A DNA stretch of 64,000 nucleotides, taken from positions 124,001 through 188,000 of the forward strand of contig NZ_CP084951.1 in NCBI RefSeq assembly GCF_022788655.1. The letters are read 5' to 3'. The DNA is from Sulfitobacter indolifex. Its GTDB lineage: Bacteria; Pseudomonadota; Alphaproteobacteria; Rhodobacterales; Rhodobacteraceae. Made by a program: the position numbers and the translations under genes. The notes beneath the pieces were generated by a model. The model did no database searches. It was not told the DNA's origin and worked only from the letters and a program-made list of their open reading frames with translations. Of this stretch, positions 3,221-55,352 are shown piece after piece (the stretch's first letter is position 1; every line of letters begins with the position of its first letter).

Positions 3221-3250
3221 TGTAATAAATCCGACATAATTTTGTTGACA
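3221..3250. promoter_or_regulatory. Candidate RpiR operator / divergent promoter region
   Basis: AT-rich segment between the divergent regulator and amidohydrolase genes. Its ends, TGTAATAAAT and TTTGTTGACA, form an imperfect inverted repeat with TGT...ACA outer bases. Known RpiR-family operators (HexR, MurR) often carry TGTAAT-like half-sites, so autoregulation and control of the operon are plausible. The assignment rests on shape and position only. Confidence 0.3.
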
Positions 3251-3316
3251 GACGCGACCGTCCGCAGGAGGTTCGATGCAACACAGGGGGATCGTGTGCC
3301 GGGGAAAAGCAACGCA

Positions 3317-5963: not shown

Positions 5964-6013
5964 CAATGAGAGCCGCGAAAAGACGGCCTGATATTTCAAC
6001 AAAGGAGAGACGT

Positions 6014-7051: not shown

Positions 7052-7061
7052 ACCGACAACC

Positions 7062-7084
7062 GGGGGCGCGCTGCCTGCGCCCCC
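7062..7084 (+). terminator. Intercistronic hairpin after the TRAP receptor gene
   Basis: An 8-bp perfect GC stem, GGGGGCGC (7062-7069) with GCGCCCCC (7077-7084), and a 7-base loop. It is followed by only a weak pyrimidine run. Such hairpins between a receptor gene and later genes commonly act as partial terminators or 3'-end protectors, giving more receptor than enzyme. Confidence 0.55.
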
Positions 7085-7110
7085 GCCTTACCTCTTGAAG
7101 TGGACTGAAC

Positions 7111-8475: not shown

Positions 8476-8477
8476 GA

Positions 8478-9851: not shown

Positions 9852-9854
9852 GAC

Positions 9855-16456: not shown

Positions 16457-16506
16457 TTGCACCGATGCTGTTCCCGCTCCTATTCTGCGCCAAACAGGAG
16501 AGAGAC

Positions 16507-18585: not shown

Positions 18586-18589
18586 CCCC

Positions 18590-25143: not shown

Positions 25144-26544
25144 TTACTTTTGCTCTTCGGCCACAGCGGCGGCGACTGCTTCTTCAAAGATTGTCAGACC
25201 TTCGTCCACAATGGCATCCGACGCGGTCAGCGGCACCATGACGCGCACGGCATTGCCGTGCATGCCACAGCTCAAAAGCAGCAGGCCGCGCTTCAGGGCG
25301 TGGGCGATGACACGCTTGGTGAAGTCGGCGTCTGGTTTGGCGCTGTCGAAGTCGGTCACGAACTCAACGGCGACCATGGCCCCAAGACCGCGGATGTCCC
25401 AGAAACGGTAGGGCGCGGCACGTGCGCCGATTTCGGCAAAGCGGGTCTTGAGCGTTTCGCCCATGGCGGTGGAGCGGGCGAGCAGGCCTTCTTCTTCGAT
25501 CGCCTCGATTGCGGCGAGCGCTGCGGCACAGGCCACCGGGTTGCCGCCATAAGTGCCGCCCAGACCGCCGGGGATCATCGCATCCATCAGATCGGCGCGG
25601 CCAATCACGCCAGCCAAAGGATAACCGCCGGCCATGGATTTCGCCACGGTGATCAGGTCAGGCACCACGCCGGAATGCTCGATAGAGAACCACGTGCCGG
25701 TGCGGCCAAAGCCCGCCTGCACTTCGTCAGCGATCAGCAGGATGCCGTGCTGGTCACAGATCGCGCGCAGTTCTTGCATCATTTCGAACGGCACGGGGGT
25801 GTAGCCACCTTCGCCAAGCACCGGCTCGATGATGATCGCTGCAACACGCTCGGGCTGCGCATCGGTAAGGAACAAGTTCTTCAACCCAGTCAGCGCGTCC
25901 TGCACGGTGATCCCATCACGAACCGAAGGGAACGGCGCGCGGAAGACATCCGCCGGGAAGGGGCCCACGTCTTTTTTGTAGGGGGAGATTTTACCGGTCA
26001 TGCCCAGCGTCAGCAGGGTACGGCCATGGTAGCCGCCGGTGAAGGCGATGATGCCCGAACGGCCAGTCGCGGCGCGGGCAATTTTCACGGCATTTTCAAC
26101 AGCCTCAGCACCGGTGGTGACAAGCAGCGTCTTTTTCGGCGCGTCACCGGGGGCCAGTGCGTTCAGCTTCTCTGCCAGCTCAACATAGGGGCCGTAGGGC
26201 ACAACCTGAAAGCTGGTGTGGGTGTAGTTGTCTTCTTGAGCCTTGGCGGCTTCGATGACCTTTGGATGACGGTGCCCGGTGTTCAACACCCCAATGCCGC
26301 CGACGAAGTCGATGTAGCGGTTGCCTTCCACGTCCCACAGTTCGGCATTTTCGGCGTATTTCGCATAGATCGGCGCGGCAGAGGCCACCCCGCGCGGCAC
26401 GGCAGCATCGCGGCGTGCGACGAGATCAGCGTTGGTCTGACCATTTGACTGCGTGGCTGGGTTTGCTTCGACAACCTTCATTTGCGGTGCTGTCTTGGCC
26501 TTGTTGGCGGACTTCCGAGACGATTTTTTGACGGTGCTGGACAT
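25144..26544 (-). CDS. gabT: 4-aminobutyrate aminotransferase (class III PLP transaminase)
   Basis: Transfers the amino group of GABA (or related omega-amines) to 2-oxoglutarate. At 466 aa it is about 35-40 residues longer than E. coli GabT, owing to a Lys/Ser/Ala-rich N-terminal extension (residues 1-38, beginning MSSTVKKSSRKSANKAK). From residue 41 on it matches the family: RRDAAVPRGV, LWDVEGNRYIDFVGGIGVLNTGHRHPKV, TLLVTTGAEAVENAVKIARAATGR near 139-162, LLIADEVQAGFGRTG near 269 and the PLP lysine at about 302 in ITVAKSMAGGYPLAGV. It is divergent from an XRE-cupin regulator, as PuuR-type regulators often are from GABA and putrescine genes. A good -35/-10 pair is seen upstream. Confidence 0.92.
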   Translation of the reverse strand: MSSTVKKSSRKSANKAKTAPQMKVVEANPATQSNGQTNADLVARRDAAVPRGVASAAPIYAKYAENAELWDVEGNRYIDFVGGIGVLNTGHRHPKVIEAAKAQEDNYTHTSFQVVPYGPYVELAEKLNALAPGDAPKKTLLVTTGAEAVENAVKIARAATGRSGIIAFTGGYHGRTLLTLGMTGKISPYKKDVGPFPADVFRAPFPSVRDGITVQDALTGLKNLFLTDAQPERVAAIIIEPVLGEGGYTPVPFEMMQELRAICDQHGILLIADEVQAGFGRTGTWFSIEHSGVVPDLITVAKSMAGGYPLAGVIGRADLMDAMIPGGLGGTYGGNPVACAAALAAIEAIEEEGLLARSTAMGETLKTRFAEIGARAAPYRFWDIRGLGAMVAVEFVTDFDSAKPDADFTKRVIAHALKRGLLLLSCGMHGNAVRVMVPLTASDAIVDEGLTIFEEAVAAAVAEEQK

Positions 26545-29377: not shown

Positions 29378-29379
29378 AT

Positions 29380-29937
29380 TTAGAAGGAAGAAACTTTAGA
29401 GGAAGATAGAACGGACATGGTCGCGTCGTCGGTCATCTCAAGAGATTCATTGTCATGATGGCCAAGCAGTTCTGCAAGGCGCGCGCGGGCCCTGTTTGTA
29501 CGACTTTTTATGGTACCAACGGCTACACCGCACATATCCGCCGCTTCCTCGTAGGAGAAGCCAGAAGCCCCCACCAGCAACAAAGCTTCGCGTTGTTCAT
29601 CTTTCAACAGGGCAAGCGCCTTACGAAAATCGGTCATCTGCATGTGGCCATCATGGGCGGGCTTTTCAGCCAAACCTTCGGTTAGCACGCCATCAACATC
29701 AGATACTTCGCGTTTGGCTTTGCGACGAGAGGAATAATAGGTGTTACGCAGGATCGTGAACAACCAAGCACGCATGTTCGTACCAACTTGGAACTTCTCA
29801 ATGTTCGTCCAGGCTTTGACCAGAGTGTCCTGAACCATGTCGTCTGCCGTGGCACCGTTGCGGGTGAGGCTGATGGCAAAAGCCCGCATGGCCGGCAGAT
29901 GCTCTACCAGCTCGTCGCGCGGATCGGGACGGGTCAT
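29380..29937 (-). CDS. ecfG: General stress ECF sigma factor EcfG
   Basis: Extracytoplasmic-function sigma factor of 185 aa that directs RNA polymerase to general stress promoters. Region 2 spans about residues 12-80 (ADDMVQDTLVKAWTNIEKF and MRAWLFTILRNTYYSSRRK) and region 4 about 108-160 (LLKDEQREALLLVGASGFSYEEAADMCGVAVGTIKSRTNRAR). A 25-residue Ser/Asp-rich tail follows region 4. The gene overlaps nepR by one base and is followed by the kinase. NepR holds it inactive until phosphorylated PhyR removes NepR. The operon has its own EcfG-type promoter, giving positive feedback. Confidence 0.95.
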   Translation of the reverse strand: MTRPDPRDELVEHLPAMRAFAISLTRNGATADDMVQDTLVKAWTNIEKFQVGTNMRAWLFTILRNTYYSSRRKAKREVSDVDGVLTEGLAEKPAHDGHMQMTDFRKALALLKDEQREALLLVGASGFSYEEAADMCGVAVGTIKSRTNRARARLAELLGHHDNESLEMTDDATMSVLSSSKVSSF

Positions 29938-30107
29938 TATGACGTTCCTTTTTCTGAATCCTGTTGCTTTAGCTTTTGCAGCAGATCCTTGAAACGGTCA
30001 GGGATGCCTTCGTCGAGCGTCTCATCGAAGACACGCTTGAGGTTGTCGTCGATAACGCGCTCGCGCTCGTCCTTGTTTCCTGAATTCACTAGCATCACCT
30101 CTGGCAT
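29937..30107 (-). CDS. nepR: Anti-sigma factor NepR
   Basis: Small anti-sigma factor of 56 aa, close to the usual length. The core RERVIDDNLKRVFDETL with EGIPDRFKDLLQKLK after it is the NepR signature of two helices that bind either EcfG or the sigma-like part of PhyR. I place the start at ATG 30107. The longer frame, beginning at 30176, would start upstream of the promoter described below, and ATG 30095 is an alternative. The stop overlaps the ecfG start by one base, so anti-sigma and sigma are made in step. It is divergent from phyR, the usual arrangement in this group of bacteria. Confidence 0.93.
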   Translation of the reverse strand: MPEVMLVNSGNKDERERVIDDNLKRVFDETLDEGIPDRFKDLLQKLKQQDSEKGTS

Positions 30108-30140
30108 CGTCGTCTCATTTGAATAATTATGTACGCATAC

Positions 30141-30175
30141 TGGAACCAAACACAATGTCAGGGTGTTTGGTTCCA
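30141..30175. promoter_or_regulatory. Palindromic divergent EcfG promoter (nepR-ecfG-kinase / phyR)
   Basis: A perfect 13-bp inverted repeat, TGGAACCAAACAC (30141-30153) and GTGTTTGGTTCCA (30163-30175), with a 9-base centre. Each strand reads GGAAC, 17 bases, TGTT: plus GGAAC 30142-30146 and TGTT 30164-30167; minus GGAAC 30174-30170 and TGTT 30152-30149. These fit the EcfG consensus except T for C before GTT. Predicted starts lie about 27-35 bases before phyR (30202) and nepR (30107). The two promoters occupy the same DNA, so polymerase bound for one direction should exclude the other. Confidence 0.85.
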
Positions 30176-30201
30176 AGAAAAGTAAAAAAGGATTCGACTA
30201 G

Positions 30202-31011
30202 ATGAACGATGCGACACAAAAGACCAGCATCAGCGATGAACTGGGTGCCAACATCCCCTACCTTCGCCGGTTCGCGCGGGCGATGACGGGCAGCCAGACC
30301 AGTGGTGACACGTTCGCCGCGGCGGCGCTGGAAGCCATCTTGGTTGATCGCTCGGTGCTCGATGGGGTGGACACAAAGACGGGTCTTTTCAGAGTTTTGT
30401 ACGGAATTTGGGCCAGCGCAGGCGCACCCGTGGAAGAGGGCGAAAGCGGCCCTCGCGCCAAGGCGCAGCGCCACCTCTCAAGCCTGACCAACAACAGCCG
30501 TGAAGCGCTTTTGCTGCACACGATCGAGGGGTTTTCATACGGCGAGATCGCGAAAATCATCGGTGTAGATGAAGACGAAGCTGACGAGTTGATCCAGATT
30601 GCCCACCGCGAGATGGCCGACAGCACCTCGGGTTCGGTGATGATTATCGAAGACGAAGCGATCATCGCGATGGATATTGAATCAATCGTTGCAGAAATGG
30701 GCCACCGCGTCACCGGCATCGCGCGCACACGTGATGAGGCTGTGAAGCTTGGCAAGGCGGACGTACCTGACCTTATTCTTGCGGACATCCAGCTGGCCGA
30801 CAATTCATCCGGCATTGATGCGGTGAATGACCTGTTGAACGAACTTGGGATGCGCCCCGTGATCTTTATCACCGCCTTCCCCGAGCGTTTGCTGACAGGC
30901 GACAAGCCAGAGCCGGCCTTCTTGATCTCAAAGCCCTACTCGGTGGATCAGGTTGTATCGGCGGTGTCACAGGCGATGTTCTTTTCCTCCACAGAAACGC
31001 TCAACGCTTAA
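30202..31011 (+). CDS. phyR: Response regulator and anti-anti-sigma factor PhyR
   Basis: Key switch of the alphaproteobacterial general stress response, 269 aa. Residues about 12-140 form the sigma-factor-like domain (region 2-like IPYLRRFARAMTGSQTSGD; region 4-like SSLTNNSREALLLHTIEGFSYGEIAKIIGVDEDEADELI), which binds NepR when exposed. Residues about 147-265 form the receiver domain with acidic pocket IIEDEAIIAMDI, phospho-acceptor Asp in LILADIQLAD, and conserved Lys in LISKPYSV. On phosphorylation it sequesters NepR and frees EcfG. AAGGA lies 9 bases before the ATG. It is monocistronic, ended by a strong hairpin at 31026-31065. Confidence 0.96.
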   Translation: MNDATQKTSISDELGANIPYLRRFARAMTGSQTSGDTFAAAALEAILVDRSVLDGVDTKTGLFRVLYGIWASAGAPVEEGESGPRAKAQRHLSSLTNNSREALLLHTIEGFSYGEIAKIIGVDEDEADELIQIAHREMADSTSGSVMIIEDEAIIAMDIESIVAEMGHRVTGIARTRDEAVKLGKADVPDLILADIQLADNSSGIDAVNDLLNELGMRPVIFITAFPERLLTGDKPEPAFLISKPYSVDQVVSAVSQAMFFSSTETLNA

Positions 31012-43550: not shown

Positions 43551-44510
43551 ATGAAAATGTTCAAAATGCTCGCGATGACCGGTGCCATGGTGGCCGGCTC
43601 TGCGGCCATGGCTCAGGAAAAGTTCATCACCATCGGCACCGGTGGCCAGACGGGCGTTTACTTCGTCGTCGGTCAGTCGATCTGCCGTCTGGTGAACCGC
43701 GGCACAGCGGATCACAACCTGAAGTGCACGGCGCCTTCGACCGGTGGGTCGATCGCCAACATCAACGCGATCAAAGCGGGCGACATGGACATGGGCGTTG
43801 CCCAGTCTGACTGGCAGTTCCACGCCTACAATGGCTCGTCGCAGTTCGAAGGCGACAAGTTCGACAACCTGCGCGCGGTCTTCTCCGTGCATGGTGAGCC
43901 GTTCAACGTGATCGCCCGTGCCGACAGCGGCATCGAGTCGTTCGACGACCTTAAAGGCAAGCGCGTCAACATCGGTAACCCCGGTTCCGGTCAGCGCGCC
44001 ACCATGGAAGTCGTGATGGACGCCAAGGGCTGGACGCTGGACGATTTCGCACTGGCCTCCGAGCTGAAGCCTGCTGAGCAAGCTGCCGCTCTGGGCGACA
44101 ACAAAGTGGATGCGATCATCTACACCGTGGGCCACCCGAACGGCTCCATCCAAGAAGCCGTGTCGACCATCGACGCCAAGCTGATCCCCGTTGACGGTGA
44201 CGCGATCCAAGGTCTGATCGACAACAACCCTTACTACGCCGAGGCCACCGTGCCGGGCGGCATGTACAAGGGCACCGACAGCGACATCAAAACTTTCGGC
44301 GTGAAAGCGACGTTCGTAACTTCCGCCGATGTGGATGACGATGTTGTCTATCAGGTCGTTAAGGCCGTGTTCGACAACTTCGACCGTTTCAAGCGCCTGC
44401 ACCCGGCGTTCGAAAACCTTACCCAAGAAGAGATGATCTCGGGCGGTCTGTCTGCTCCGCTGCACCCCGGTGCAGAGAAGTATTACAAAGAGCAAGGCTG
44501 GATCGAGTAA
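43551..44510 (+). CDS. TAXI-family TRAP transporter solute receptor
   Basis: Periplasmic receptor of 319 aa. The start at 43551 has GGGAGA 6 bases upstream. Residues 1-22 form a Sec signal peptide (FKMLAMTGAMVAGSAAMAQ). The mature protein starts EKFITIGTGGQTGVYFVVGQSICRLVNRG, the TAXI-family opening, followed by STGGSIANINAIKAGDMDMGVAQSDW near 62, which contacts ligand in the related GluBP. TAXI receptors work with fused 4TM/12TM permeases, and one is encoded 105 bases downstream. Ligands known for the family include glutamate and related acids. The 233 bases upstream hold only a TGACGTCA palindrome (43418-43425) of unknown meaning and no gene. Confidence 0.93.
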   Translation: MKMFKMLAMTGAMVAGSAAMAQEKFITIGTGGQTGVYFVVGQSICRLVNRGTADHNLKCTAPSTGGSIANINAIKAGDMDMGVAQSDWQFHAYNGSSQFEGDKFDNLRAVFSVHGEPFNVIARADSGIESFDDLKGKRVNIGNPGSGQRATMEVVMDAKGWTLDDFALASELKPAEQAAALGDNKVDAIIYTVGHPNGSIQEAVSTIDAKLIPVDGDAIQGLIDNNPYYAEATVPGGMYKGTDSDIKTFGVKATFVTSADVDDDVVYQVVKAVFDNFDRFKRLHPAFENLTQEEMISGGLSAPLHPGAEKYYKEQGWIE

Positions 44511-44614: not shown

Positions 44615-47368
44615 ATGTCTGAGAAGGACCAGCAAAAGGCCGCAGCCGTTGAGACCGCTGCGACCGGTGACCGAGGCGGATTAAGCCAGTCGGAACTGGA
44701 CGAGCTTGTCGCTTCTTCTGACACGGGTGGCCGCACTGTCAGCGGGCTGATGGGCACCTTGCTGCTGCTCGTGGCGCTGGCATGGTCGCTGTTTCAGCTT
44801 TATATCGCCTCGCCCATTGGGCTTTTCAACGACACGCTGGCCCGGTCAATTCACTTAGGCTTTGCCATATTCCTTGGCATTATGGTGTTCCCGGCCACAC
44901 GTACCAGTTTTCAGGTGGCGCTTGGCGTTATCGTTCCTGCCGTTCTTGCCGCGCTCTTTATGGTCAGCACCAAAGATTCGACCGCCGTCTGGTGGATCCC
45001 GATCCCAGCGGCTTTTGTCATTGCCACAGTGCTCCTTGGCTCCCCCAAAAACCGCATTCCGATCTGGGAATGGGCATTGGCGATTGTTGGCACCTTTTGC
45101 GCGCTTTACCTCTTTATCTTCTACCGTGAAATCGCCAACCGCGTCGGCGCGCCGATCCTGCCAGACTATATTGCAGGTGTTACCGGACTGTTAATCCTGC
45201 TCGAAGCCACCCGCCGCGCCCTTGGGCCTGCGTTGATGATCGTGGCGAGCATTTTTCTCTTCTACACCGTGCTTGGCCCATCTATGCCCAGCATCATCGC
45301 GCATAAGGGCAACAGCCTGTCGGAGATCGTGAACCACCAGTGGATCACCACCGAAGGCGTCTTTGGCATCGCACTTGGGGTTTCGACCTCCTTCGTGTTC
45401 CTCTTCGTGCTGTTCGGTTCACTTTTGGACCGTGCAGGCGCGGGCAACTATTTCATTCAAGTCGCGTTTAGCCTCATGGGCCACATGCGCGGCGGCCCGG
45501 CGAAAGCGGCTGTTGTGGCATCGGCCATGACCGGCCTGATTTCCGGCTCTTCCATCGCCAATGTGGTGACCACCGGCACATTCACCATTCCGTTGATGAA
45601 GAAGGTGGGCTTTAGCTCCGAAAAAGCGGGCGCGGTCGAGGTGGCCTCCTCGGTCAACGGACAGATCATGCCGCCCGTGATGGGGGCCGCGGCCTTCCTC
45701 ATGGTTGAGTATGTCGGCATCCCCTATTTCGACGTGGTCAAACACGCCTTTCTGCCCGCGGTAATCTCCTACATCGCGCTGGTCTATATCGTGCATCTTG
45801 AGGCGATGAAGGCCGGGATGCAGGGCTTGCCGCGCGCCTATACGCCCAAGCCGCTGGTGCAGCAGCTGATCGGTATCGCCTTTGCGATCATCGCGATTTG
45901 CGCGTTGTCTTTCGCTGTGTACTACCTGATGGGCTGGATCCGTCCGACCTTCCCAGAAACTGCGGGCTATATCATCTTTGTCTTCCTTACGGCGGTCTAT
46001 GTCGGCCTGCTCTATGTGGCGAGCAAGGAAGAACCGCTGAAACTGGATGATCCCAATGCCGAAGTGACATCGCTGCCGATGCCCGGCCCGACGGCGCGGT
46101 CTGGTTTGCATTTCATCTTGCCGGTGGTCGTGCTGGTCTGGGCGCTGATGGTCGATCGCCTGTCACCGGGCCTCTCGGCCTTCTGGGCGGCGTCTTACAT
46201 GATCTTCATTCTGCTGACACAGCGCCCCTTGATGGCGATGTTCCGGGGCGAGAGCAAGTTCTTGAACGATGTGAAAGCGGGTGTTTTCGATCTGATCGAC
46301 GGTCTCGTCACCGGTGCGCGCAATATGATCGGTATCGGTATCGCCACGGCGACAGCGGGTATCATCGTGGGCGCAGTCAGCCAGACAGGCGTCGGCTCGG
46401 CGCTGGCGGATGTGGTTGAGGTGCTTTCGGGCGGCAATATCCTTGCCATCCTCTTCCTGACGGCGGTGCTGTCGCTGATCCTCGGCATGGGCTTGCCCAC
46501 CACGGCGAACTATATCGTCGTCTCGGCGCTGCTTGCACCAGTGATCGTGACATTGGGCCAGCAGAACGGGTTGATCGTGCCGCTGATCGCTGTGCACCTC
46601 TTTGTGTTCTACTTTGGCATCATGGCCGATGTGACCCCGCCGGTGGGTTTGGCGAGTTTCGCCGCCGCCGCCGTTTCGGGCGGTGATCCGATCCGCACCG
46701 GCTTGGTTGCCTTCTTCTATTCCCTGCGCACCGCGGCGCTGCCGTTCCTGTTTATCTTCAACACGGAATTGCTGTTGATTGGTGTGACATGGGGGCAGGG
46801 GCTGTTCATCTTTGTGGTGGCAACGGTGGCGATGCTGCTCTTTGCCGCTGCGACCCAAGGTTGGTTTTTGGCCCGCAACCGTTTCTACGAGTCCATCGCG
46901 CTGCTGCTGATTGCCTTTACGTTGTTCCGTCCGGGGTTCTGGATGGACATGGTCTATCCGCCCTATAGCGAAGAAGCCCCGGCTGAAATCGTGCAGGCGG
47001 CCGAGGAAACCCCTGCGGGCGAACGGCTGCGGTTGCGGGTTTCGGGCGTGAACGATCTGGGCGATCCGCTGGAATTTGTAGCGCTGCTGCCCATCGGCGC
47101 GGGCGAGACGGGGGCAGAGAAGCTGGAGGCTTCGGGCCTGATGTTCCGCGAGGATGGCGATAAGATGATCATCGACGATGTGATCTACGATAGCCCCGCC
47201 CAATCGGCTGGTCTGGACTGGGATCAAGAGGTGCTGCGCGTGCTGAAACCGGTGCCGCAGCCCAGCAAGTATTGGATGTTCATCCCTGCGCTCTTGCTGC
47301 TGGCGCTGGTTGTTTTCCTGCAACGGGGCCGTGCTGCGCGCGAAACGCGCAAGCCCGCGACAGCCTGA
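44615..47368 (+). CDS. TRAP transporter fused 4TM/12TM permease with C-terminal DUF3394/PDZ-like domain
   Basis: Large inner-membrane permease of 917 aa, in which the small (DctQ-like) and large (DctM-like) subunits are joined, as is normal in TAXI systems. It has a cytoplasmic N-terminal tail of about 45 residues, then helices to about residue 780. Signature parts are AAVVASAMTGLISGSSIANVVTTG near 300, VNGQIMPPVMGAAAFLM near 350 and LILGMGLPTTANYIVVSALLAPVI near 620. Residues about 790-890 are a soluble region containing DVIYDSPAQSAGLDWDQEVLRV, like a DUF3394/PDZ-type domain, before one last helix and an Arg-rich end. It transports the ligand delivered by the TAXI receptor. Confidence 0.93.
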   Translation: MSEKDQQKAAAVETAATGDRGGLSQSELDELVASSDTGGRTVSGLMGTLLLLVALAWSLFQLYIASPIGLFNDTLARSIHLGFAIFLGIMVFPATRTSFQVALGVIVPAVLAALFMVSTKDSTAVWWIPIPAAFVIATVLLGSPKNRIPIWEWALAIVGTFCALYLFIFYREIANRVGAPILPDYIAGVTGLLILLEATRRALGPALMIVASIFLFYTVLGPSMPSIIAHKGNSLSEIVNHQWITTEGVFGIALGVSTSFVFLFVLFGSLLDRAGAGNYFIQVAFSLMGHMRGGPAKAAVVASAMTGLISGSSIANVVTTGTFTIPLMKKVGFSSEKAGAVEVASSVNGQIMPPVMGAAAFLMVEYVGIPYFDVVKHAFLPAVISYIALVYIVHLEAMKAGMQGLPRAYTPKPLVQQLIGIAFAIIAICALSFAVYYLMGWIRPTFPETAGYIIFVFLTAVYVGLLYVASKEEPLKLDDPNAEVTSLPMPGPTARSGLHFILPVVVLVWALMVDRLSPGLSAFWAASYMIFILLTQRPLMAMFRGESKFLNDVKAGVFDLIDGLVTGARNMIGIGIATATAGIIVGAVSQTGVGSALADVVEVLSGGNILAILFLTAVLSLILGMGLPTTANYIVVSALLAPVIVTLGQQNGLIVPLIAVHLFVFYFGIMADVTPPVGLASFAAAAVSGGDPIRTGLVAFFYSLRTAALPFLFIFNTELLLIGVTWGQGLFIFVVATVAMLLFAAATQGWFLARNRFYESIALLLIAFTLFRPGFWMDMVYPPYSEEAPAEIVQAAEETPAGERLRLRVSGVNDLGDPLEFVALLPIGAGETGAEKLEASGLMFREDGDKMIIDDVIYDSPAQSAGLDWDQEVLRVLKPVPQPSKYWMFIPALLLLALVVFLQRGRAARETRKPATA

Positions 47369-47879: not shown

Positions 47880-48962
47880 ATGACCCCTTTCGCGATTGCC
47901 GGCGTGCAGATGTACGTCAATGCCTTGCAGCCCAATGTCGACGGCATGATCCAGCGGCTCGACATCTTGATGGCGCGGTTCCCTTGGACGCAGATGGTGT
48001 TGTTCTCCGAACTGGCGCCCTTTGGCCCGCTTGACCGGTTTGCTCTGCCGCCTGAGAACGAGACGATTGAGCAGTTTCAGGCCGCTGCGCGGCGTCACCG
48101 GATCTGGCTGATCCCCGGCTCGATGTTCCTTAAGCACCCCGAAGATGGCCGGGTCTATAACACCTCCGTCGTCATCAACCCCGAGGGTGAAGTGGTGCGC
48201 CGCTATGCCAAGATGTTCCCATTCCGCCCCTATGAGGCCGGGATCGCGGCGGGCAATGAGTTCTGCATCTTCGACGTGCCGGAAGTGGGCCGCTTCGGTC
48301 TGTCGATCTGCTATGACATGTGGTTCCCCGAGACGACGCGCCAGCTGACCTCTCAGGGTGTCGAAGTGCTGTTGCACCCCGTCCTGACCGGCACCACCGA
48401 CCGCGACGCGGAGCTTGCCATTGCGCGCGCCACGGCGGCGCAGTTTCAGTGTTACATTTTCGACGTGAACGGCCTTGGCGCGGGCGGTGTGGGCAAATCA
48501 TGCGTGGTCGATCCGACCTCAATGGTTTTGCACCAGTCGGCGGGCCAAGAAGACATGTTCCCGATTGAGATTGACCTCAACATGGTGCGCCGCCAGCGCG
48601 AGACGGGCATGAAGGGCTTGGGCCAACTGCTTAAGTCCTTCCGTGATCGCCCGACAGACTTCCCGGTCTATGACCGCGAAAGCGGCGCGGATGCGTTCCT
48701 GCACACCCTCGGCCCGCTTGAGATTCCACAGCAGGGCACCCGCGCGGGGCTGCACGTCGATGTGCCGGGCCAACAGGTTCCGGCTGAAATTCCCGCTTAC
48801 AAGGGCAAGAACGGCTTCCCACCCGAGCCGCTTGCCAGCCCCACCGCCGGCACTGCGCCGGAAGTGGCCCAAGCACCGGTCCCCGCAGCACCCGCTGCGG
48901 CGATGCCCGATCCACAGACAACGCTCGAAACACCCGGGCACAACGAAAATACCAGCGGCTAG
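47880..48962 (+). CDS. Carbon-nitrogen hydrolase (nitrilase superfamily) with C-terminal tail
   Basis: Amidohydrolase of 360 aa in the nitrilase superfamily. The catalytic Glu44 (FSELAPFGP), Lys111 (YAKMFPFRPYE) and Cys144 (LSICYDMWFPE) are all present, so it should cleave an amide, nitrile or carbamoyl bond, like N-carbamoyl amine amidases. The usual domain ends near residue 270. A further 90 residues follow, the last 50 rich in Pro, Ala and Thr (SPTAGTAPEVAQAPVPAAPA), a flexible tail not normal in the family. The start at 47880 has no strong ribosome site. It heads a run of five enzymes (decarboxylase, ATP-grasp, C45, CoA racemase-like), so its substrate may be an intermediate of that pathway. 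Confidence 0.87.
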   Translation: MTPFAIAGVQMYVNALQPNVDGMIQRLDILMARFPWTQMVLFSELAPFGPLDRFALPPENETIEQFQAAARRHRIWLIPGSMFLKHPEDGRVYNTSVVINPEGEVVRRYAKMFPFRPYEAGIAAGNEFCIFDVPEVGRFGLSICYDMWFPETTRQLTSQGVEVLLHPVLTGTTDRDAELAIARATAAQFQCYIFDVNGLGAGGVGKSCVVDPTSMVLHQSAGQEDMFPIEIDLNMVRRQRETGMKGLGQLLKSFRDRPTDFPVYDRESGADAFLHTLGPLEIPQQGTRAGLHVDVPGQQVPAEIPAYKGKNGFPPEPLASPTAGTAPEVAQAPVPAAPAAAMPDPQTTLETPGHNENTSG

Positions 48963-49028
48963 GCCGGGGCGAGGTTCGCGCAAAGCGTGACCTGATGCAT
49001 CGGTCGGCCCTCCAGCAGAGGACGACTG

Positions 49029-51764
49029 ATGCATTCTATGAACGACTATTCCTCGGCCATTCAACTGCGGTCGGATCGGTGGAGCGCCCTGCGCGCCGCC
49101 GCCGCCGCCATGTCGCGCGACCCAAAGGGCAAAGGCGCGTCGCAGGGGCGCAAGGAAATCGAGGCGCTGTTCGACTCACTTGCCCTGATCGAGCCCTATT
49201 GGGCCTTTCCGGGCATGTCCGCCTTCGACCACATGCGCCGCCAGTTCGCTCATGGGAATTTCGAGGATCTGGCTTTCGCCGTAAACCGCGTGACCCGTGC
49301 GTTGACCACCGGCGCCTACCGCCGCCGCACGATCCCGCTGGAACGTGATAGTCTGGATCAAGACGAGCACGACGACGAGGCCATGCTGCCGCCCGAGGCA
49401 CGGGCGCTGGCAAAGCCCTATTTCGAAGTGCTGATCGTCGACAGTGTGAGCGAACAGCAGGAGCGCTGGCTGCGCAGCAATGTCACCCGCATGCGCCGCA
49501 CCGAAGACCCGTTCATCTATGAGGCGGTTGTGGTGCCCAGCCTTGAAGACGCGCTGATTGCGGTGATGTTCAACCACAACATTCAAGCGATCGTGGTGCG
49601 GCCCGGTCTGACCCTGAAATCCAAGGTGGATCAGCAGATTCTGACCCGCTACCTCGCCCGCGCGGGAGGGCAAGATGAGATCGACGCGCTAGAGCCTGAA
49701 AACTACGGCCCTGAGCTTTGCCGAATGATTGCCAAAGTGCGGCCCGAGTTAGACGCCTATCTGGTGACCGAACGCTCGGTTGAGGATATCGCCGGGCTTG
49801 ATCTAGGTATCTGCCGCCGGGTTTTCTACAACCAAGAAGACTTCATGGAACTGCACCTCAACATCCTGCGTGGGGTGCAGGCGCGCAACAAATCGCCCTT
49901 CTTCACCGCGCTGGTGGAGTATTCCAAACAGCCGACAGGTGTTTTCCATGCCATGCCGATCAGCCGCGGCAAGTCGATCACCCGTAGCCATTGGATTCAG
50001 GACATGGGGGCGTTTTACGGCCCTAACATCTTCCTAGCAGAGACCTCGGCCACCTCAGGCGGGCTGGATAGTTTGCTGGAACCGCACGGCCCGATCAAAG
50101 AGGCGCAGGAGCTGGCCAGCCGGGCTTTCGGCTCTAAACAGACGTTTTTCGCAACCAACGGCACTTCGACCTGTAACAAGATCGTGGTGCAGGCGCTTGT
50201 GCGGCCCGGTGACATCGTGCTGGTCGACCGCGACTGCCACAAGTCGCACCACTATGGCATGGTGCTTGCGGGCGCGCAGGTGAGCTACCTCGACAGCTAT
50301 CCGCTGAATGAATATTCGATGTATGGCGCGGTGCCGCTGCGCGAGATCAAGGAACGCCTTCTGGAGCTGAAGGCCGCCGGCAAGCTTGACCGGGTGCGGA
50401 TGCTGCTTCTGACCAACTGCACCTTTGACGGGCTGGTCTATAACGTCGAACGGGTGATGGAGGAATGTCTGGCCATTAAGCCCGATCTCATCTTCCTCTG
50501 GGACGAGGCGTGGTTCGCTTTCGCCCGGTTTAGTCCCACATATCGCCAGCGCACGGCGATGAATGCAGCCAACACCCTGCGCGAAAAGTTCAAGTCTGAC
50601 GCCCATGCTAACGCCTATGAGGCACAGCAAAAGACGCTGAAAGACGCGGACGACGAGACCCTGCTGAGCACCCGGCTGATCCCACCGCCGCAGGCGCGGG
50701 TGCGTGCCTATGCCACGCAATCGACCCACAAAACGCTGACCTCGCTGCGTCAGGGTTCGATGATCCACGTCAACGATCAGGACTTCAAAGGCGAAGTCGA
50801 GCAGAGCTTCCATGAAGCTTACATGACCCACACCTCGACCTCACCGAACTACCAGATCATTGCCTCGCTCGATGTGGGCCGCCGACAGGTCGAACTCGAA
50901 GGGTTCGAGTTTGTGCAAAGGCAGGTCGAAGCGGCCATGTCCATGCGCCGCGCGATCAGCGAACACGCCTTGCTGCGCAAGTATTTCAAGGTACTGACCG
51001 CCGGAGACATGATCCCTGAGGCGCATCGCGAAAGCGGGGTCACCAGCTATTACGATACCGAACAGGGCTGGACCGACATGTGGGATTGCTGGGAGCAGGA
51101 CGAATTCGTGCTCGATGCCACCCGCGTGACCCTCGCGGTGGGCGGCACGGGTTGGGATGGCGATACCTTCAAGACACAGATCCTGATGGATAAATACGGC
51201 ATCCAGATCAACAAAACCTCGCGCAATACCGTGTTGTTCATGACCAACATCGGCACCACGCGTTCTTCGGTGGCCTATCTGATCGAAGTGCTGGTCGAGA
51301 TCGCCAAATCGCTCGACGATCTGCTGGATGACGCCAGCCGGATGGAGCGTCTGTCGTTCGATCGACGCGTCACCAACCTGATGGAGAACTACCCGCCGCT
51401 GCCGGACTTCAGCAAATTCCACGATGCTTTTCGCGCCAATGACACGCCCGAGGGCGACATTCGCACGCCGTTCTTCCTCGCCTATGACGAGAAAAACTGT
51501 GACTACCTTGACCTGAACGGCACGCTTCAAGAGGCGATGGATGCGGGCGAGACCGTTGTCTCGGCCAGTTTCATCATCCCTTATCCGCCCGGCTTTCCGA
51601 TCCTAGTCCCCGGGCAAGTCGTCAGTCAGGAAATTCTCGCTTTCATGCGTGCGCTGGATGTCAGCGAAATCCACGGATACCGGCCTGATCTGGGCCTGCG
51701 CGTCTTTACCACCGAAGCGCTCAACCGCGTGCGCCGCAAAGACCTTTCTTCTTCACCCGTTTGA
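49029..51764 (+). CDS. Orn/Lys/Arg-type PLP decarboxylase (large form)
   Basis: Fold-type I decarboxylase of 911 aa, longer than inducible E. coli lysine or arginine decarboxylases (about 715-755). An N-terminal region of about 290 residues includes a receiver-like wing domain (YFEVLIVDSVSEQQERWL near 131). The PLP domain has FATNGTSTCNKIVVQAL near 374 and LFLWDEAWFAF-like Asp492. The PLP lysine is at about 568 in YATQSTHKTLTSLRQGSMIHV-type sequence, closely matching the lysine decarboxylase motif. The C-terminal domain follows from about 720. It should remove CO2 from a basic amino acid to give a diamine or related amine. The next gene, an ATP-grasp ligase, starts 17 bases after it. Confidence 0.88.
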   Translation: MHSMNDYSSAIQLRSDRWSALRAAAAAMSRDPKGKGASQGRKEIEALFDSLALIEPYWAFPGMSAFDHMRRQFAHGNFEDLAFAVNRVTRALTTGAYRRRTIPLERDSLDQDEHDDEAMLPPEARALAKPYFEVLIVDSVSEQQERWLRSNVTRMRRTEDPFIYEAVVVPSLEDALIAVMFNHNIQAIVVRPGLTLKSKVDQQILTRYLARAGGQDEIDALEPENYGPELCRMIAKVRPELDAYLVTERSVEDIAGLDLGICRRVFYNQEDFMELHLNILRGVQARNKSPFFTALVEYSKQPTGVFHAMPISRGKSITRSHWIQDMGAFYGPNIFLAETSATSGGLDSLLEPHGPIKEAQELASRAFGSKQTFFATNGTSTCNKIVVQALVRPGDIVLVDRDCHKSHHYGMVLAGAQVSYLDSYPLNEYSMYGAVPLREIKERLLELKAAGKLDRVRMLLLTNCTFDGLVYNVERVMEECLAIKPDLIFLWDEAWFAFARFSPTYRQRTAMNAANTLREKFKSDAHANAYEAQQKTLKDADDETLLSTRLIPPPQARVRAYATQSTHKTLTSLRQGSMIHVNDQDFKGEVEQSFHEAYMTHTSTSPNYQIIASLDVGRRQVELEGFEFVQRQVEAAMSMRRAISEHALLRKYFKVLTAGDMIPEAHRESGVTSYYDTEQGWTDMWDCWEQDEFVLDATRVTLAVGGTGWDGDTFKTQILMDKYGIQINKTSRNTVLFMTNIGTTRSSVAYLIEVLVEIAKSLDDLLDDASRMERLSFDRRVTNLMENYPPLPDFSKFHDAFRANDTPEGDIRTPFFLAYDEKNCDYLDLNGTLQEAMDAGETVVSASFIIPYPPGFPILVPGQVVSQEILAFMRALDVSEIHGYRPDLGLRVFTTEALNRVRRKDLSSSPV

Positions 51765-51781
51765 CCAAAAGGACCAACGAC

Positions 51782-53239
51782 ATGGCAACAGTACTTAAAA
51801 ATATCTCTGAAATCCGCCGGTTCTTTCACCGAAACGAAGACCCTGTTTATTTTATTTCGGCCACAAACTTTAACCTGTTGGGGTTGGATGAGTGGGTGAA
51901 GAACTTCAAATACATCTGCTACATCGACTGCTACGGCGGCAAGCATCCCAACGTCTTCTGCCCCTCGGAGCAGCCTCATGCGGAATTCCAGAGCATTGAG
52001 GACATCAACAACTATCTGCTGCAGCACAAGGAGGTCATCGACTTCATCAAGCGCCGTGGCGGCAAGCCCAAGTTTGTCTTCTTGATGTTCGACGAAGAGA
52101 CTGAGCGTCTCTCAAAAGAGCTGGGCGCAGATGTCTGGTTCCCCAAGGCCAAGCTGCGCCAATCGATGGACAACAAGATCGAAACCGTGCGTATCGGCAA
52201 CAAGGCAGGCGTGCCCTCGGTGCCGAACGTTCTGGCCGAGGTGAAGTCTTATGACGATCTGAAAAAGACCTGCGAGAAGGCCGGGATTGGCAATGATCTG
52301 GTGTTGCAATCGGCCTATGGCGACAGCGGGCACACGACGTTCTTTATCAAATCCGAAGCTGACTTCCGCCGCCATGAGAGCGAGATCATCGGCGAGGGTG
52401 AGATCAAGATCATGAAGCGCATCGATTGCCGAGGTGCGGCGATTGAGGCCTGCGCCACCAAGGAAGGCACGATTGTCGGCCCGCTGATGACTGAACTGGT
52501 CGGCTTCAAAGAACTGACCCCCTATCGCGGCGGCTGGTGCGGCAACGAGATCCTTGCCACCGCCTTCCCGCCGAAAGTCCGCGAAAAAGCGCGCGATCTG
52601 ACCTTCAAGTTTGGCGAACAGCTGCGCAAAGAAGGCTATCGCGGTTATTTCGAATTGGATTTCTTGATCGACAAGAAGACCGGCGACCTGTGGCTGGGTG
52701 AATTGAACCCACGCATCACCGGCGCATCGTCGATGACCAACCACGCGGCCTTTGCTCATGCCGATGCGCCGCTTTTCCTGTTCCACCTTCTGGAGTTCTC
52801 GAAAAAGAAATTCGATCTGGACGTGGATGAACTGAACGCCCGCTGGGCCGACCCTGAGATGATCGACGGTTGGAGCCAGATGGTGATCAAGCACACCGAC
52901 GACAGCGTCGACATCTGCACCGATGCGCCAGAGACCGGCATCTATAAGATGAAAGAAGACGGCAGCGTGGTCTTTGACCGCTTCGATTATCACCGCCGTG
53001 CGGTGGAGAGTGAGAGCGAGGCCTTCTTCCTGCGCATCTTGCAACCGGGTGATTACCGCTATGAAGGGGCCGACATTGGCATCCTTGTGACGCGGGGTCG
53101 ATCGATGACCAAGTCTTTCCAGTTGAATGAGCGCGCGAAAAAGTGGATTCACGGGATCAAACGTGCGGTGGACGGTAAACCCATCCCCTCCGCTTCTGCT
53201 GGTCCGGAGTTTTCTGACCCGGCGTTCAAGATCCTGTAA
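51782..53239 (+). CDS. Stand-alone ATP-grasp carboxylate-amine ligase-like protein
   Basis: Protein of 485 aa often labelled biotin carboxylase-like. I take ATG 51782, which has AAGGAC 7 bases upstream. The ATP-grasp core spans about residues 125-345: KIETVRIGNKAGVPSVPN near 132, LVLQSAYGDSGHTTFFIKS near 173, FELDFLIDKKTGDLWLGELNPRITGASSMTN near 290-320 with the Mg-binding Glu and Asn. No biotin-carrier or carboxyltransferase gene is nearby, and the N-terminal part differs from biotin carboxylases, so amide or peptide bond formation between a carboxylate and an amine is more likely. The amine could be the product of the upstream decarboxylase (inference). Confidence 0.8.
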   Translation: MATVLKNISEIRRFFHRNEDPVYFISATNFNLLGLDEWVKNFKYICYIDCYGGKHPNVFCPSEQPHAEFQSIEDINNYLLQHKEVIDFIKRRGGKPKFVFLMFDEETERLSKELGADVWFPKAKLRQSMDNKIETVRIGNKAGVPSVPNVLAEVKSYDDLKKTCEKAGIGNDLVLQSAYGDSGHTTFFIKSEADFRRHESEIIGEGEIKIMKRIDCRGAAIEACATKEGTIVGPLMTELVGFKELTPYRGGWCGNEILATAFPPKVREKARDLTFKFGEQLRKEGYRGYFELDFLIDKKTGDLWLGELNPRITGASSMTNHAAFAHADAPLFLFHLLEFSKKKFDLDVDELNARWADPEMIDGWSQMVIKHTDDSVDICTDAPETGIYKMKEDGSVVFDRFDYHRRAVESESEAFFLRILQPGDYRYEGADIGILVTRGRSMTKSFQLNERAKKWIHGIKRAVDGKPIPSASAGPEFSDPAFKIL

Positions 53240-53256
53240 CGAAATGAAAGGCCGCG

Positions 53257-54228
53257 ATGTACTGGCGCGCACTGTCCGAAGACCAGCCCGGCCCCAAGTG
53301 GGCCGGACTCTTCGCGGCCTATTGGCCTGACTACCATGCGTGGTGGCTGAAGGAGGGTGAGGCCGCGCGCCCCACCTACGCCCAATGCCGCCGCGCCTTG
53401 GCCAAACACATGCCGGAAATGCTGCCGCTCTATGACGAGCTTTGCACCCTTGCAGGCGGCGGCGATCACGCCGCGCGGTTCCTCAGCTTCTATTGCCCGC
53501 CACCTTATCTCTCAGCCTGCTCCCAAGCGATCTGGGCCGGGAAAGAGCCGGTCATGGTGCGCAACTACGATTATAACCCCAATGCTTTTGACGCGATGGT
53601 GCTGCGCACGGGTTGGCAAGGACGGCAGGTCATGGGCACCTCAGACGGGCTTTGGGGGCTGGTCGATGGGGTGAACGACGCAGGGCTGTCGATCTCGCTG
53701 ACCTTTGGCGGGCGGCGCGTGGTGGGCGAGGGCTTCGGCGTGCCACTGATCCTGCGCTATGTGCTGCAAACCTGCGAAACTGCGCAAGAGGCGGGCGAGG
53801 TGCTGTCGCGGGTGCCGACGCATATGAGCTATAACGTCACCGTGCTGGACCGGAAACGCAACTATCTGACTGCGATGATGGCCCCTGACCGCCCGGCGGT
53901 CATCACCCGCGCGGCGGTGGCGACGAACCATCAAGAAAGCGTTGAGTGGATCAGCCATGCACGGTTCACTGCCACTGTGGAGCGTGAACGCTATCTCTTG
54001 CAGCGTCTGCGGCTGCACCGTGACCCCGAAGAGAAGTTTATCGGCGCGTTTCTGAAGCCGCCGCTTTATTCCACGGCGTTTAATGCGGGGTTTGGCACGC
54101 TCTATACTGCTGTTTACCGACCGCGAAAGCGCCAGATGGAACTGCGTTGGCCCGGCACAACATGGGCGCTTTCCTTGAGCGATTTCACCGAAGGCGCGCG
54201 GCAGGTGCTGGTGCCGGGGGCGGCATGA
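53257..54228 (+). CDS. C45-family autoproteolytic acyltransferase/hydrolase-like protein
   Basis: Protein of 323 aa resembling the C45 family (acyl-CoA:6-aminopenicillanic acid acyltransferase type). The likely self-cleavage and nucleophile residue is Cys88 in PPYLSACSQAIW, followed by VMVRNYDYNPNAF with the conserved R-N-Y/F-D near 100. GLVDGVNDAGLSISLTFGGR near 133-152 and AVATNHQ near 222 (conserved Asn-His) are further family marks. Enzymes of this group transfer or remove acyl groups on amines after autoactivation. The start is 17 bases after the ATP-grasp stop, and the end overlaps the next gene by 4 bases. The substrate may be an N-acyl or amide product of this gene set (inference). 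Confidence 0.8.
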   Translation: MYWRALSEDQPGPKWAGLFAAYWPDYHAWWLKEGEAARPTYAQCRRALAKHMPEMLPLYDELCTLAGGGDHAARFLSFYCPPPYLSACSQAIWAGKEPVMVRNYDYNPNAFDAMVLRTGWQGRQVMGTSDGLWGLVDGVNDAGLSISLTFGGRRVVGEGFGVPLILRYVLQTCETAQEAGEVLSRVPTHMSYNVTVLDRKRNYLTAMMAPDRPAVITRAAVATNHQESVEWISHARFTATVERERYLLQRLRLHRDPEEKFIGAFLKPPLYSTAFNAGFGTLYTAVYRPRKRQMELRWPGTTWALSLSDFTEGARQVLVPGAA

Positions 54229-55328
54229 GCATGGCGGAACGTACAGGGCCGCTGGCCTCGTTAAGGGTGGTGGAGTTTTCTGGGCTGGGGCCTGCGCCGC
54301 TTGCTGGGCAGTTGCTGGCCGATCTTGGGGCGGATGTCATTACGGTCGACCGCAAAGCCGCCCCGGCGGACCCGTCGGACATTAACCGGCGCGGCAAGCG
54401 TTCGGTGGTGTTGAACCTGAAAAAATCCGAAGGCATCGCGGCGGCGCGGGCGCTGATCGCTTCCGCCGATGTGCTGATCGAGGGGTTTCGCCCCGGCGTG
54501 ATGGAGCGTTTGGGCCTCGGACCTGAGAGTTGCCCTGAGATACTGATCTATGGCCGCATGACCGGTTGGGGCCAGACTGGCCCATGGGCGCAAACGGCGG
54601 GGCATGACATCAACTATCTGGCTCTAACAGGGGCTTTACACGCCATGGGCAGCGCGGATGCGCCCCCTGTGCCGCCGCTGAATATGGTCGCAGACTACGG
54701 CGGCGGGACGATGTTTCTGCTGTTAGGCATCCTCTCGGCAGTGATCGAGCGCGGTGTGACAGGCAAAGGCCAAGTGGTCGATGCGGCCATGGTCGATGGG
54801 GTGCCGGCGATGATGGGGCTGATCCACGGCATGTTGGCTCAAAACAAGTGGACGGAAGAGCGCGCCGCAAATTGGCTGGACGGGGCCGCACCTTTCTATC
54901 GATGCTACACCTGTGCGGATGGCAAGTTTCTCGCTGTGGGCGCTTTAGAGCCTCAGTTCTACGCGATCCTTTTAGACAAGCTAGACCTGCCCGCAGAGTA
55001 TGCGACCACCCAAAACGACACCGCCACATGGCCCGCGCGGACCACTGAATTCGCCGCGATCTTTGCCACGCGCAGCCGCGACGACTGGGCTGCGCATTTC
55101 GATGGTTCCGACGCCTGTGTCGCCCCGGTGCTGCGCTTTTCCGAAGCGCCGGATCATCCCCAGATGGCGGCGCGGGGCAATGTGCTGCGCGTGGATGGCG
55201 TGCTGCAATCAGGCCACGCGCCGCGATTTGGGGCGGGGGCACCGGAAATGCCCAGCCCACCGCGTGCTATCGGCGCAGATACGGACGCGGTGTTAAAGGA
55301 ACTGGGCGTCACCTTGGACCGCGCATAA
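54225..55328 (+). CDS. CaiB/BaiF CoA-transferase family protein, alpha-methylacyl-CoA racemase-like
   Basis: Class III CoA-transferase-fold protein of 367 aa. The start at 54225 overlaps the C45 stop (ATGA); ATG 54231 is an alternative. LRVVEFSGLGPAPLAGQLLADLGADVITVDR opens the family fold. RRGKRSVVLNLKKSEG near 59 is the CoA-binding region. GRMTGWGQTGPWAQTAGHDINYLALTGALHAMG near 111-143 contains the His, and NMVADYGGGTMFLLLGIL near 155 the Asp, that act in alpha-methylacyl-CoA racemase. So racemisation of a 2-methylacyl-CoA is the closest reading; CoA transfer cannot be excluded. It is last in the five-gene run. Confidence 0.85.
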   Translation: MSMAERTGPLASLRVVEFSGLGPAPLAGQLLADLGADVITVDRKAAPADPSDINRRGKRSVVLNLKKSEGIAAARALIASADVLIEGFRPGVMERLGLGPESCPEILIYGRMTGWGQTGPWAQTAGHDINYLALTGALHAMGSADAPPVPPLNMVADYGGGTMFLLLGILSAVIERGVTGKGQVVDAAMVDGVPAMMGLIHGMLAQNKWTEERAANWLDGAAPFYRCYTCADGKFLAVGALEPQFYAILLDKLDLPAEYATTQNDTATWPARTTEFAAIFATRSRDDWAAHFDGSDACVAPVLRFSEAPDHPQMAARGNVLRVDGVLQSGHAPRFGAGAPEMPSPPRAIGADTDAVLKELGVTLDRA

Positions 55329-55352
55329 AAAACCCCGGCCAAATGACCGGGG
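55327..55352 (-). terminator. Terminator of the PfpI gene (minus strand)
   Basis: On the minus strand CCCCGG (55352-55347) pairs with CCGGGG (55338-55333), followed at once by six T residues (55332-55327). It lies after the pfpI stop at 55379 and touches the stop codon of the convergent CoA-racemase-like gene. Confidence 0.82.

What the first reader, a model, noticed from the sequence alone, without database searches (positions are those of the whole stretch)
47880..55328. Uncharacterised five-enzyme cluster: amidohydrolase, large decarboxylase, ATP-grasp, C45, AMACR-like
Seen: five genes on one strand, the last four with gaps of 17 and 17 bases and a 4-base overlap, encoding activities for making an amine (PLP decarboxylase with the STHK lysine motif), joining it to a carboxylate (ATP-grasp without biotin partners), acyl transfer or removal (C45), racemising an acyl-CoA, and cleaving an amide (nitrilase fold). 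Known: each family acts on amines, amides or acyl groups. Inference: together they could build or recycle an N-acylated or peptide-like amine without an NRPS. I know of no described pathway with this set.
Basis: partly seen in the sequence, partly recalled or inferred. Interest (0 to 1): 0.7.

Follow-up and report, generated by a model that had tools for sequence, protein, structure and literature searches.

The report
Conserved decarboxylase–ligase operon, probably glutamate-linked
A block of four enzymes that many marine bacteria keep together, usually beside a likely glutamate importer or a likely GABA-degrading enzyme, may turn glutamate into an amine and make and break amides, and it contains a decarboxylase whose family has no known substrate.

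Summary
The five genes exist as described, with gaps of 17 and 17 bases and a 4-base overlap. The conserved unit differs: among 80 related loci DC-GRASP are adjacent in 80, GRASP-C45 in 79 of 79 testable and Nit-DC in 78 of 78 testable, but the racemase gene in only 10. In 196 genomes of the order, DC, GRASP and C45 orthologues occur in the same 40. A TAXI-TRAP importer lies upstream in 46 of 80. Its binding protein is 61% identical to the glutamate-specific VcGluP and keeps the two most important ligand residues. GabT and a PuuR-like regulator recur beside the block and are in this window at 25-27 kb. DC belongs to the Rv2531c family, of unknown activity. It lacks the amine-binding Glu of lysine and ornithine decarboxylases (Asn in 112 of 112) and has Arg where AdiA has Asp (111 of 112). 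Eight relatives in a separate clade sit beside aspartate-alanine antiporters. Best reading: glutamate uptake, an unusual glutamate-to-GABA decarboxylase, and ATP-driven amide formation beside two amide-cleaving enzymes. All substrates are inferred.

The parts
43551..44510 (+). TAXI solute-binding protein, predicted L-glutamate binder
   Evidence: TIGR02122 over cut-off; 61% identical to VcGluP 8S4J with Tyr45, Ser75, Gln93, Glu125, Gly156 and Tyr200 kept
44615..47368 (+). fused TRAP permease with C-terminal DUF3394
   Evidence: TIGR02123 over cut-off, PF11874
47381..47812 (+). universal stress protein UspA
   Evidence: PF00582; Usp adjacent to Nit in 26 of 80 loci
47880..48962 (+). Nit: nitrilase-fold amidase, Glu44-Lys111-Cys144 (triad recalled), long low-complexity tail (by eye)
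   Evidence: PF00795, residue positions; adjacent to DC in 78 of 78 testable loci
49029..51764 (+). DC: large OKR-fold PLP decarboxylase of the Rv2531c type, PLP Lys568
   Evidence: PF01276; PDB 9n0n/9n0o E about 2e-243; residues
51782..53239 (+). GRASP: ATP-grasp enzyme, possible carboxylate-amine ligase (annotated biotin carboxylase)
   Evidence: NF005096 over cut-off; no Pfam match; fold matches biotin carboxylase, PurK and PylC within one Z unit
53257..54228 (+). C45: N-terminal-nucleophile amidase/acyltransferase, Cys88
54225..55328 (+). alpha-methylacyl-CoA racemase-like CoA-transferase family III, lineage-specific add-on
   Evidence: 8rmw/1x74 E 2.4e-113; adjacent in 10 of 80 loci
55333..55352 (.). 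terminator-like hairpin after the racemase gene
   Evidence: listed on the - strand; the number of such sites in the region is not above shuffles
25144..26544 (-). GabT, 4-aminobutyrate aminotransferase type, recurrent partner gene
   Evidence: 80% identical to annotated GabT of Roseobacter ponti p1; PF00202
26691..27278 (+). HTH-cupin regulator, PuuR-like, recurrent partner gene
   Evidence: 73% identical to the R. ponti regulator; HTH_3 and Cupin_2; the R. ponti homologue best matches PuuR, below cut-off

Best explanation
An operon for glutamate uptake and glutamate-to-amine-to-amide metabolism. (1) The TAXI-TRAP transporter imports L-glutamate (strong inference from a characterised homologue). 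(2) DC, an OKR-fold PLP enzyme, decarboxylates an acidic amino acid, most likely L-glutamate to GABA; Asn728, Arg732 and Gln863 stand where lysine, ornithine or arginine decarboxylases have other, often acidic, residues (inferred). (3) GRASP spends ATP to join a carboxylate to an amine, most likely with GABA as one partner (inferred). (4) C45, self-cleaving before Cys88, and Nit split amide bonds or move the acyl group, freeing GABA and its partner (inferred). (5) GabT, or the other class-III aminotransferase found after C45 in many relatives, removes the amine (GabT family membership shown for one relative, its flux inferred). Shown: that Nit, DC, GRASP and C45 stay together in the order sampled, and who their neighbours are. 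Not shown: any substrate.
For: Identical set of 40 handles in draws of 196 genomes for DC, GRASP and C45 orthologues and near-perfect adjacency. TAXI 61% identical to glutamate-specific VcGluP, with the two residues whose loss costs 213- and 990-fold affinity kept. A Cereibacter sphaeroides TAXI-TRAP is required for sodium-dependent growth on L-glutamate (PMC12632250, passages). GabT at 75% or more identity to the reference in 30 of 80 loci, 20 of them among the 38 where my ORF caller found no TAXI; one representative is over the GabT cut-off TIGR00700. Family-wide Asn728 112 of 112, Arg732 111 of 112, Gln863 113 of 113. Eight GRASP-less DCs lie beside AspT antiporters and form one fully supported clade without other rows; one AspT tested is over TIGR03802 and its neighbour AspD over TIGR03801. 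No PanD and no GAD over cut-off in the genome. On a Shinella plasmid GRASP-C45, with no DC in the 25 kb held, lie in a gene set predicted to run from arginine to GABA.
Against: No biochemical evidence. Arg732 is one of 14 columns that are basic in the family and in none of the three E. coli enzymes, and Gln863 one of three columns that lost an acid; I picked them for their place, and that they line the pocket was not measured on coordinates. It rests on alignment and on the recalled role of SpeF Glu532. Rv2531c itself has Ile at Arg732 (alignment). AspT could mean aspartate instead. My ORF caller found no TAXI in 38 of 80 loci; some are cut at contig ends. Ectoine-degradation contexts would also fit diaminobutyrate. 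A DC on the Roseateles plasmid lies within 10 kb of arginase and ornithine cyclodeaminase genes, which fits arginine. GRASP's best sequence and Foldseek matches in the PDB are biotin carboxylases. Other aspartate or glutamate decarboxylase families than PanD and TIGR01788 were not sought. Why an operon would hold both a ligase and two amide-cleaving enzymes is not explained.
Confidence: 0.4

Rival explanations
1. Same architecture, but DC converts L-aspartate to beta-alanine; GRASP makes a beta-alanyl amide and C45 cleaves it, as the C45 relative Tan cleaves beta-alanyl amines in insects (recalled).
For: Related DCs beside aspartate-alanine antiporters, with aspartate 4-decarboxylase near two of them; genome lacks PanD; ectoine degradation, next to the block in two gammaproteobacterial genomes, yields aspartate (end product recalled).
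Against: GabT and PuuR-like partners and a glutamate-type TAXI fit glutamate/GABA better. Orthologues in only 40 of 196 genomes of the order, so not a general beta-alanine source.
Confidence: 0.17
2. DC is an arginine decarboxylase making agmatine for an arginine-to-GABA route; GRASP, C45 and Nit act on agmatine or guanidino-butyrate derivatives.
For: The Shinella locus carries an agmatinase (TIGR01230 over cut-off) and a 5-guanidino-2-oxopentanoate decarboxylase (NF005712 over cut-off) beside GRASP-C45; a DC on the Roseateles plasmid, which also carries such a GRASP-C45 locus elsewhere, is near arginase and ornithine cyclodeaminase genes; L141 has an agmatinase-like ORF upstream of the block (by eye); among solved relatives with a named substrate the best match is an arginine decarboxylase (6q6i).
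Against: No DC in the 21-25 kb held at the Shinella, Roseateles and Sinorhizobium RAC02 GRASP loci. AdiA Thr571/Asp575 correspond to Asn/Arg in DC. Deletion of the Mycobacterium homologue was not crucial for growth on arginine (section heading and passage of PMC4569260).
Confidence: 0.13
3. DC is a 2,4-diaminobutyrate decarboxylase giving 1,3-diaminopropane, tied to ectoine turnover.
For: Block inside a doeA-doeB cluster at L129 and, by similarity of order, at L131; ectB near a DC on a Sinorhizobium plasmid; doe/eut genes near an AspT-clade DC.
Against: Only these loci; the Sinorhizobium region is rich in transposases. No ectoine gene was labelled in the Rhodobacterales loci, but they were not searched for there. 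The glutamate-type importer does not fit.
Confidence: 0.1
4. A biosynthetic route to a small N-acylated or dipeptide-like amine (osmolyte, signal or siderophore part).
For: GRASP-C45 as a stable pair, also in a second copy with Nit but no DC; a copy beside nif genes on a Rhizobium plasmid and one on a pSymA.
Against: Importer upstream and GabT-, DoeA- and DadA-type partners point to uptake and breakdown.
Confidence: 0.15

Closest known systems
Rv2531c-type decarboxylase (PDB 9n0n, 9n0o, 9n0p)
   Same: Full-length match, residues 13-902, E about 2e-243, including the long N-terminal region.
   Different: Rv2531c has Ile at the Arg732 position; its activity is not known according to a review (PMC12910592, passages).
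Inducible Lys/Orn/Arg decarboxylases LdcI, SpeF, AdiA
   Same: OKR_DC_1 core, PLP lysine, Asp492, His404, PYPPG motif.
   Different: 24-26% identity; amine-binding Glu of SpeF and LdcI replaced by Asn; PGE replaced by PGQ; Arg and Lys in the PGHxGG segment.
Decarboxylase-antiporter pairs such as AspD-AspT, GadB-GadC (recalled)
   Same: Related DCs are flanked by AspT antiporters.
   Different: The window's block has a TRAP importer, GRASP, C45 and Nit instead.
VcGluP TAXI-TRAP glutamate transporter
   Same: 61% identity, most ligand residues, fused permease with C-terminal extension and a UspA neighbour.
   Different: Asp157 to Gln, Met201 to Thr, Tyr46 to Phe, Ser40 to Gly.
Puu pathway (glutamylated putrescine to GABA; recalled)
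   Same: As inferred here: ATP-driven amide formation, amide hydrolysis, GABA aminotransferase and a PuuR-like regulator.
   Different: All amide-handling enzymes come from other families; no glutamine-synthetase-type ligase among the eight genes from TAXI to the racemase.
PylC and BesA ATP-grasp amide ligases (functions recalled)
   Different: 9-12% identity; PylC is tied with biotin carboxylases and PurK, BesA two units below the best.

Membership tests
Lys/Orn/Arg (OKR) decarboxylase superfamily | OKR_DC_1 domain, PLP Lys in STHK, Asp and His for PLP | tested here: met
   PF01276 5.8e-75; Lys568, Asp492 and His404 each in 113 of 113 family members
Lysine or ornithine decarboxylase | Glu that holds the side-chain amine (SpeF Glu532, LdcI Glu526; role recalled) | tested here: not met
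   Asn728 in 112 of 112 members with a letter there; 113 rows, one gap
Biodegradative arginine decarboxylase | Thr571/Asp575 pair of AdiA (pocket role not verified) | tested here: not met
   Asn728/Arg732; Arg in 111 of 112
Canonical glutamate decarboxylase (TIGR01788) | model match of DC | tested here: not met
   not among the 7 NCBIfam families listed for DC at E 0.001; the only genome hit is elsewhere and under cut-off
Rv2531c family | full-length similarity including the N-terminal region | tested here: met
Acidic amino acid decarboxylase (function) | activity on Glu or Asp | not testable with these tools
   needs an enzyme assay
Biotin carboxylase | Biotin_carb_N and Biotin_carb_C domains | tested here: not met
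   no Pfam family at E 0.001; weak NCBIfam matches to biotin carboxylases, best of them 8.7e-07, far under their cut-offs
Biotin carboxylase | fold | tested here: inconclusive
PRK06524 / NF005096 ATP-grasp family (named biotin carboxylase) | score over curated cut-off | tested here: met
   762 bits against 684
C45 autoproteolytic acyltransferase/hydrolase | family score and Cys nucleophile position | tested here: met
   181 bits against 85; aligned ranges start at model residue 88 and chain residue 1-2 for mature acylases
C45 autoproteolytic acyltransferase/hydrolase | acyl transfer rather than hydrolysis | not testable with these tools
   needs an assay
Glutamate-specific TAXI TRAP | ligand residues Tyr45 and Gln93 of VcGluP | tested here: met
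   Tyr37 and Gln85
Glutamate-specific TAXI TRAP | glutamate binding | not testable with these tools
   needs a binding assay
Alpha-methylacyl-CoA racemase | end-to-end match to racemases with solved structures | tested here: met
   1x74 and 8rmw, E 2.4e-113, query residues 7-358 of 367

The most novel reading that the evidence does not exclude
The Rv2531c-type enzymes of proteobacteria are a new class of acidic amino acid decarboxylase built on the Lys/Orn/Arg decarboxylase fold, glutamate-to-GABA in this clade. Here the enzyme feeds a GABA amide cycle made of an ATP-grasp ligase, a C45 amidase and a nitrilase-fold amidase: a Puu-like scheme assembled from unrelated enzymes and supplied by a TAXI glutamate importer.
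Probability: 0.28. Interest if true: 0.78.

Novelty: new variant of a known kind. Interest (0 to 1): 0.6.

Why it matters
In the order sampled, DC, GRASP and C45 come and go together, yet the paper searches made here listed nothing on the set by title or abstract (of the papers listed there, only PMC7142369 was opened, in passages). The result gives an orphan decarboxylase family, one with a solved structure and no known substrate, a short and testable substrate list. It also shows that the name biotin carboxylase for PRK06524 proteins lacks support from domain content.
Full report
OBSERVATION. Family scans name them CN_hydrolase (Nit), OKR_DC_1 (DC), NF005096 ATP-grasp (GRASP; no Pfam hit), AAT/C45 (C45) and CoA_transf_3. 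The last matches alpha-methylacyl-CoA racemases over residues 7-358 of 367. Expected catalytic residues are present: Nit Glu44-Lys111-Cys144 (triad recalled), DC Lys568, C45 Cys88.

CONSERVATION. The racemase gene is adjacent in 10, 7-9 kb away in 7 and not seen in 63. The TRAP permease lies upstream of Nit in 46. In draws of 196 genomes of the order, DC at 74% identity or more occurs in 40, GRASP in 40 and C45 at 64% or more in 40. The three lists of handles are the same 40, compared by eye. At the search thresholds DC had 44 genomes (four with only a 50% paralogue or an OKR-type hit of 35-37%) and C45 had 42 (two with only 47% paralogues). One genome listed as of the window's genus, G137, has none of the three. 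In the phylum sample GRASP is in 11 of 398, in the class sample 8 of 289, one of them a partial match, and in the order of a member of another class (G555) 6 of 194. These samples overlap and include the window's genome or G555.

NEIGHBOURS. Clustering ORFs of 103 loci gave class-III aminotransferases in 53, TRAP permease in 51, TAXI in 47, a cupin-HTH regulator in 26, Usp in 25 and an FMN glutamate-synthase-like protein in 18. Among the 80 named loci, GabT at 75% or more identity to the Roseobacter ponti protein is in 30, a second aminotransferase type in 25 (within 400 bases of the C45 end in 23), the regulator in 19; of the 38 loci where the caller found no TAXI, 20 carry GabT. A representative GabT exceeds TIGR00700, a representative of the second type exceeds NF005685, and the R. 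ponti regulator's best model is PuuR, below cut-off. The window itself has GabT (80%) and the regulator (73%) at 25-27 kb. On a Shinella plasmid and two similar ones, GRASP-C45 sit, without DC in the 21-25 kb held, among agmatinase, 5-guanidino-2-oxopentanoate decarboxylase, aldehyde dehydrogenase, D-amino acid dehydrogenase and racemase genes; family models were run on the Shinella proteins only, where the racemase stays under its model's cut-off. The Roseateles plasmid has a DC elsewhere, near arginase and ornithine cyclodeaminase genes. In the G555 genome (L129), Nit-GRASP-C45-DC lie between DoeA-DoeB (over TIGR02993 and TIGR02994) plus an Lrp-type gene and an aldehyde dehydrogenase plus aminotransferase; L131 shows the same order by similarity. 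Rhizobial plasmids carry DC-GRASP-C45: beside nif genes in L154, on a pSymA in L169, and near a glutamate dehydrogenase gene in L155, L156, L169 and L170, where some C45 calls are missing from the incomplete gene tables. A second copy in one Rhodobacterales genome is GRASP-C45-Nit without DC.

TRANSPORTER. The TAXI protein is 61% identical (181 of 296 aligned residues) to VcGluP, PDB 8S4J, and keeps Tyr45, Ser75, Gln93, His123, Glu125, Gly156 and Tyr200, with Ser40Gly, Tyr46Phe, Asp157Gln and Met201Thr. In VcGluP, Y45A and Q93A cost 213- and 990-fold affinity for glutamate (PMC11574862, passages). In Cereibacter sphaeroides, deletion of a TAXI-TRAP pair removes sodium-dependent growth on L-glutamate (PMC12632250, passages). 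The same VcGluP paper notes a phthalate-transporting TAXI elsewhere, so the family as a whole is not glutamate-only.

DECARBOXYLASE. [quoted passage not shown] Aligned with E. coli AdiA, LdcI and SpeF, SpeF Glu532 and LdcI Glu526 correspond to AdiA Thr571 and DC Asn728. In 113 family members (the window's own not counted) Asn728 holds in 112 of 112 with a letter, Arg732 in 111 of 112, Gln863 in 113 of 113 where all three E. coli enzymes have Glu; Arg313 replaces a Gly of the PGHxGG segment in 112 of 113. These are chosen columns: three columns lost an acid shared by the E. coli enzymes (451, 651, 863) and 14 became basic. The exceptions at 732 are a gap (L042) and Pro (L169); Rv2531c has Ile. 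The role of SpeF Glu532 is recalled. Eight DCs without GRASP nearby are flanked by AspT antiporters, with AspD nearby in two; they form one side of a 100/100 branch, although the tree warns that this group and Rv2531c are long branches. Not every DC without GRASP has AspT: L153 and L160 do not, and the tree puts them with the rhizobial DCs. The genome has no PanD and no GAD over cut-off. A published survey likewise shows 0 for ADC and GAD in the Roseobacter, Roseovarius and Ruegeria rows that I saw complete (PMC7142369, passages).

MECHANISM. Import of glutamate, decarboxylation to GABA, ATP-driven amide formation, amide cleavage by C45 and Nit, and transamination by GabT fit these facts with the fewest assumptions. 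GABA is the metabolite shared by the predicted Rhodobacterales and Shinella contexts. The weak points are the ectoine context, the arginine contexts, the AspT context, which fits aspartate as well, and the absence of any direct evidence for GRASP substrates.

VERDICT. A real, tightly conserved module whose function was not found in the papers searched. It is a new combination of known enzyme families around an orphan decarboxylase family, and it has become testable. My confidence is about 0.97 that the block is a unit, about 0.55 that it handles glutamate-derived compounds, and about 0.4 that DC is a glutamate decarboxylase.

Noticed in passing
window 3242-11000: N-formylglutamate amidohydrolase, TRAP genes (by eye), a glutamine-synthetase-like enzyme, an aldehyde dehydrogenase and an iron alcohol dehydrogenase: another glutamate/amide-type cluster.
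   Followed up: partly
window 16465-20299: Two ORFs that look like hydantoinase/5-oxoprolinase subunits A and B (by eye only).
   Followed up: no
window 27653-31011: Sensor kinase, sigma factor and response regulator of general stress type (by eye) lie next to the GabT/PuuR pair, as annotated in Roseobacter ponti plasmid p1.
   Followed up: no
L187 8495-12972: Second GRASP-C45-Nit set without a decarboxylase, preceded by an ORF that looks like a class I glutamine amidotransferase (by eye).
   Followed up: partly
G000:C1:2118151-2119083: A C45 paralogue at 45% identity elsewhere in the window's genome.
   Followed up: no
G000:C6:51775-52956 and C6:101238-102419: Two class-III aminotransferase matches with identical scores about 49.5 kb apart on one contig: a duplication or an assembly effect.
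   Followed up: no
L154: DC-GRASP-C45 right beside nifHDKEN on a Rhizobium plasmid, hinting at a symbiosis role.
   Followed up: no
L135-L137, L158, L159, L173-L175: Rv2531c-type decarboxylases flanked by aspartate-alanine antiporters, a candidate new acid-resistance pair.
   Followed up: partly
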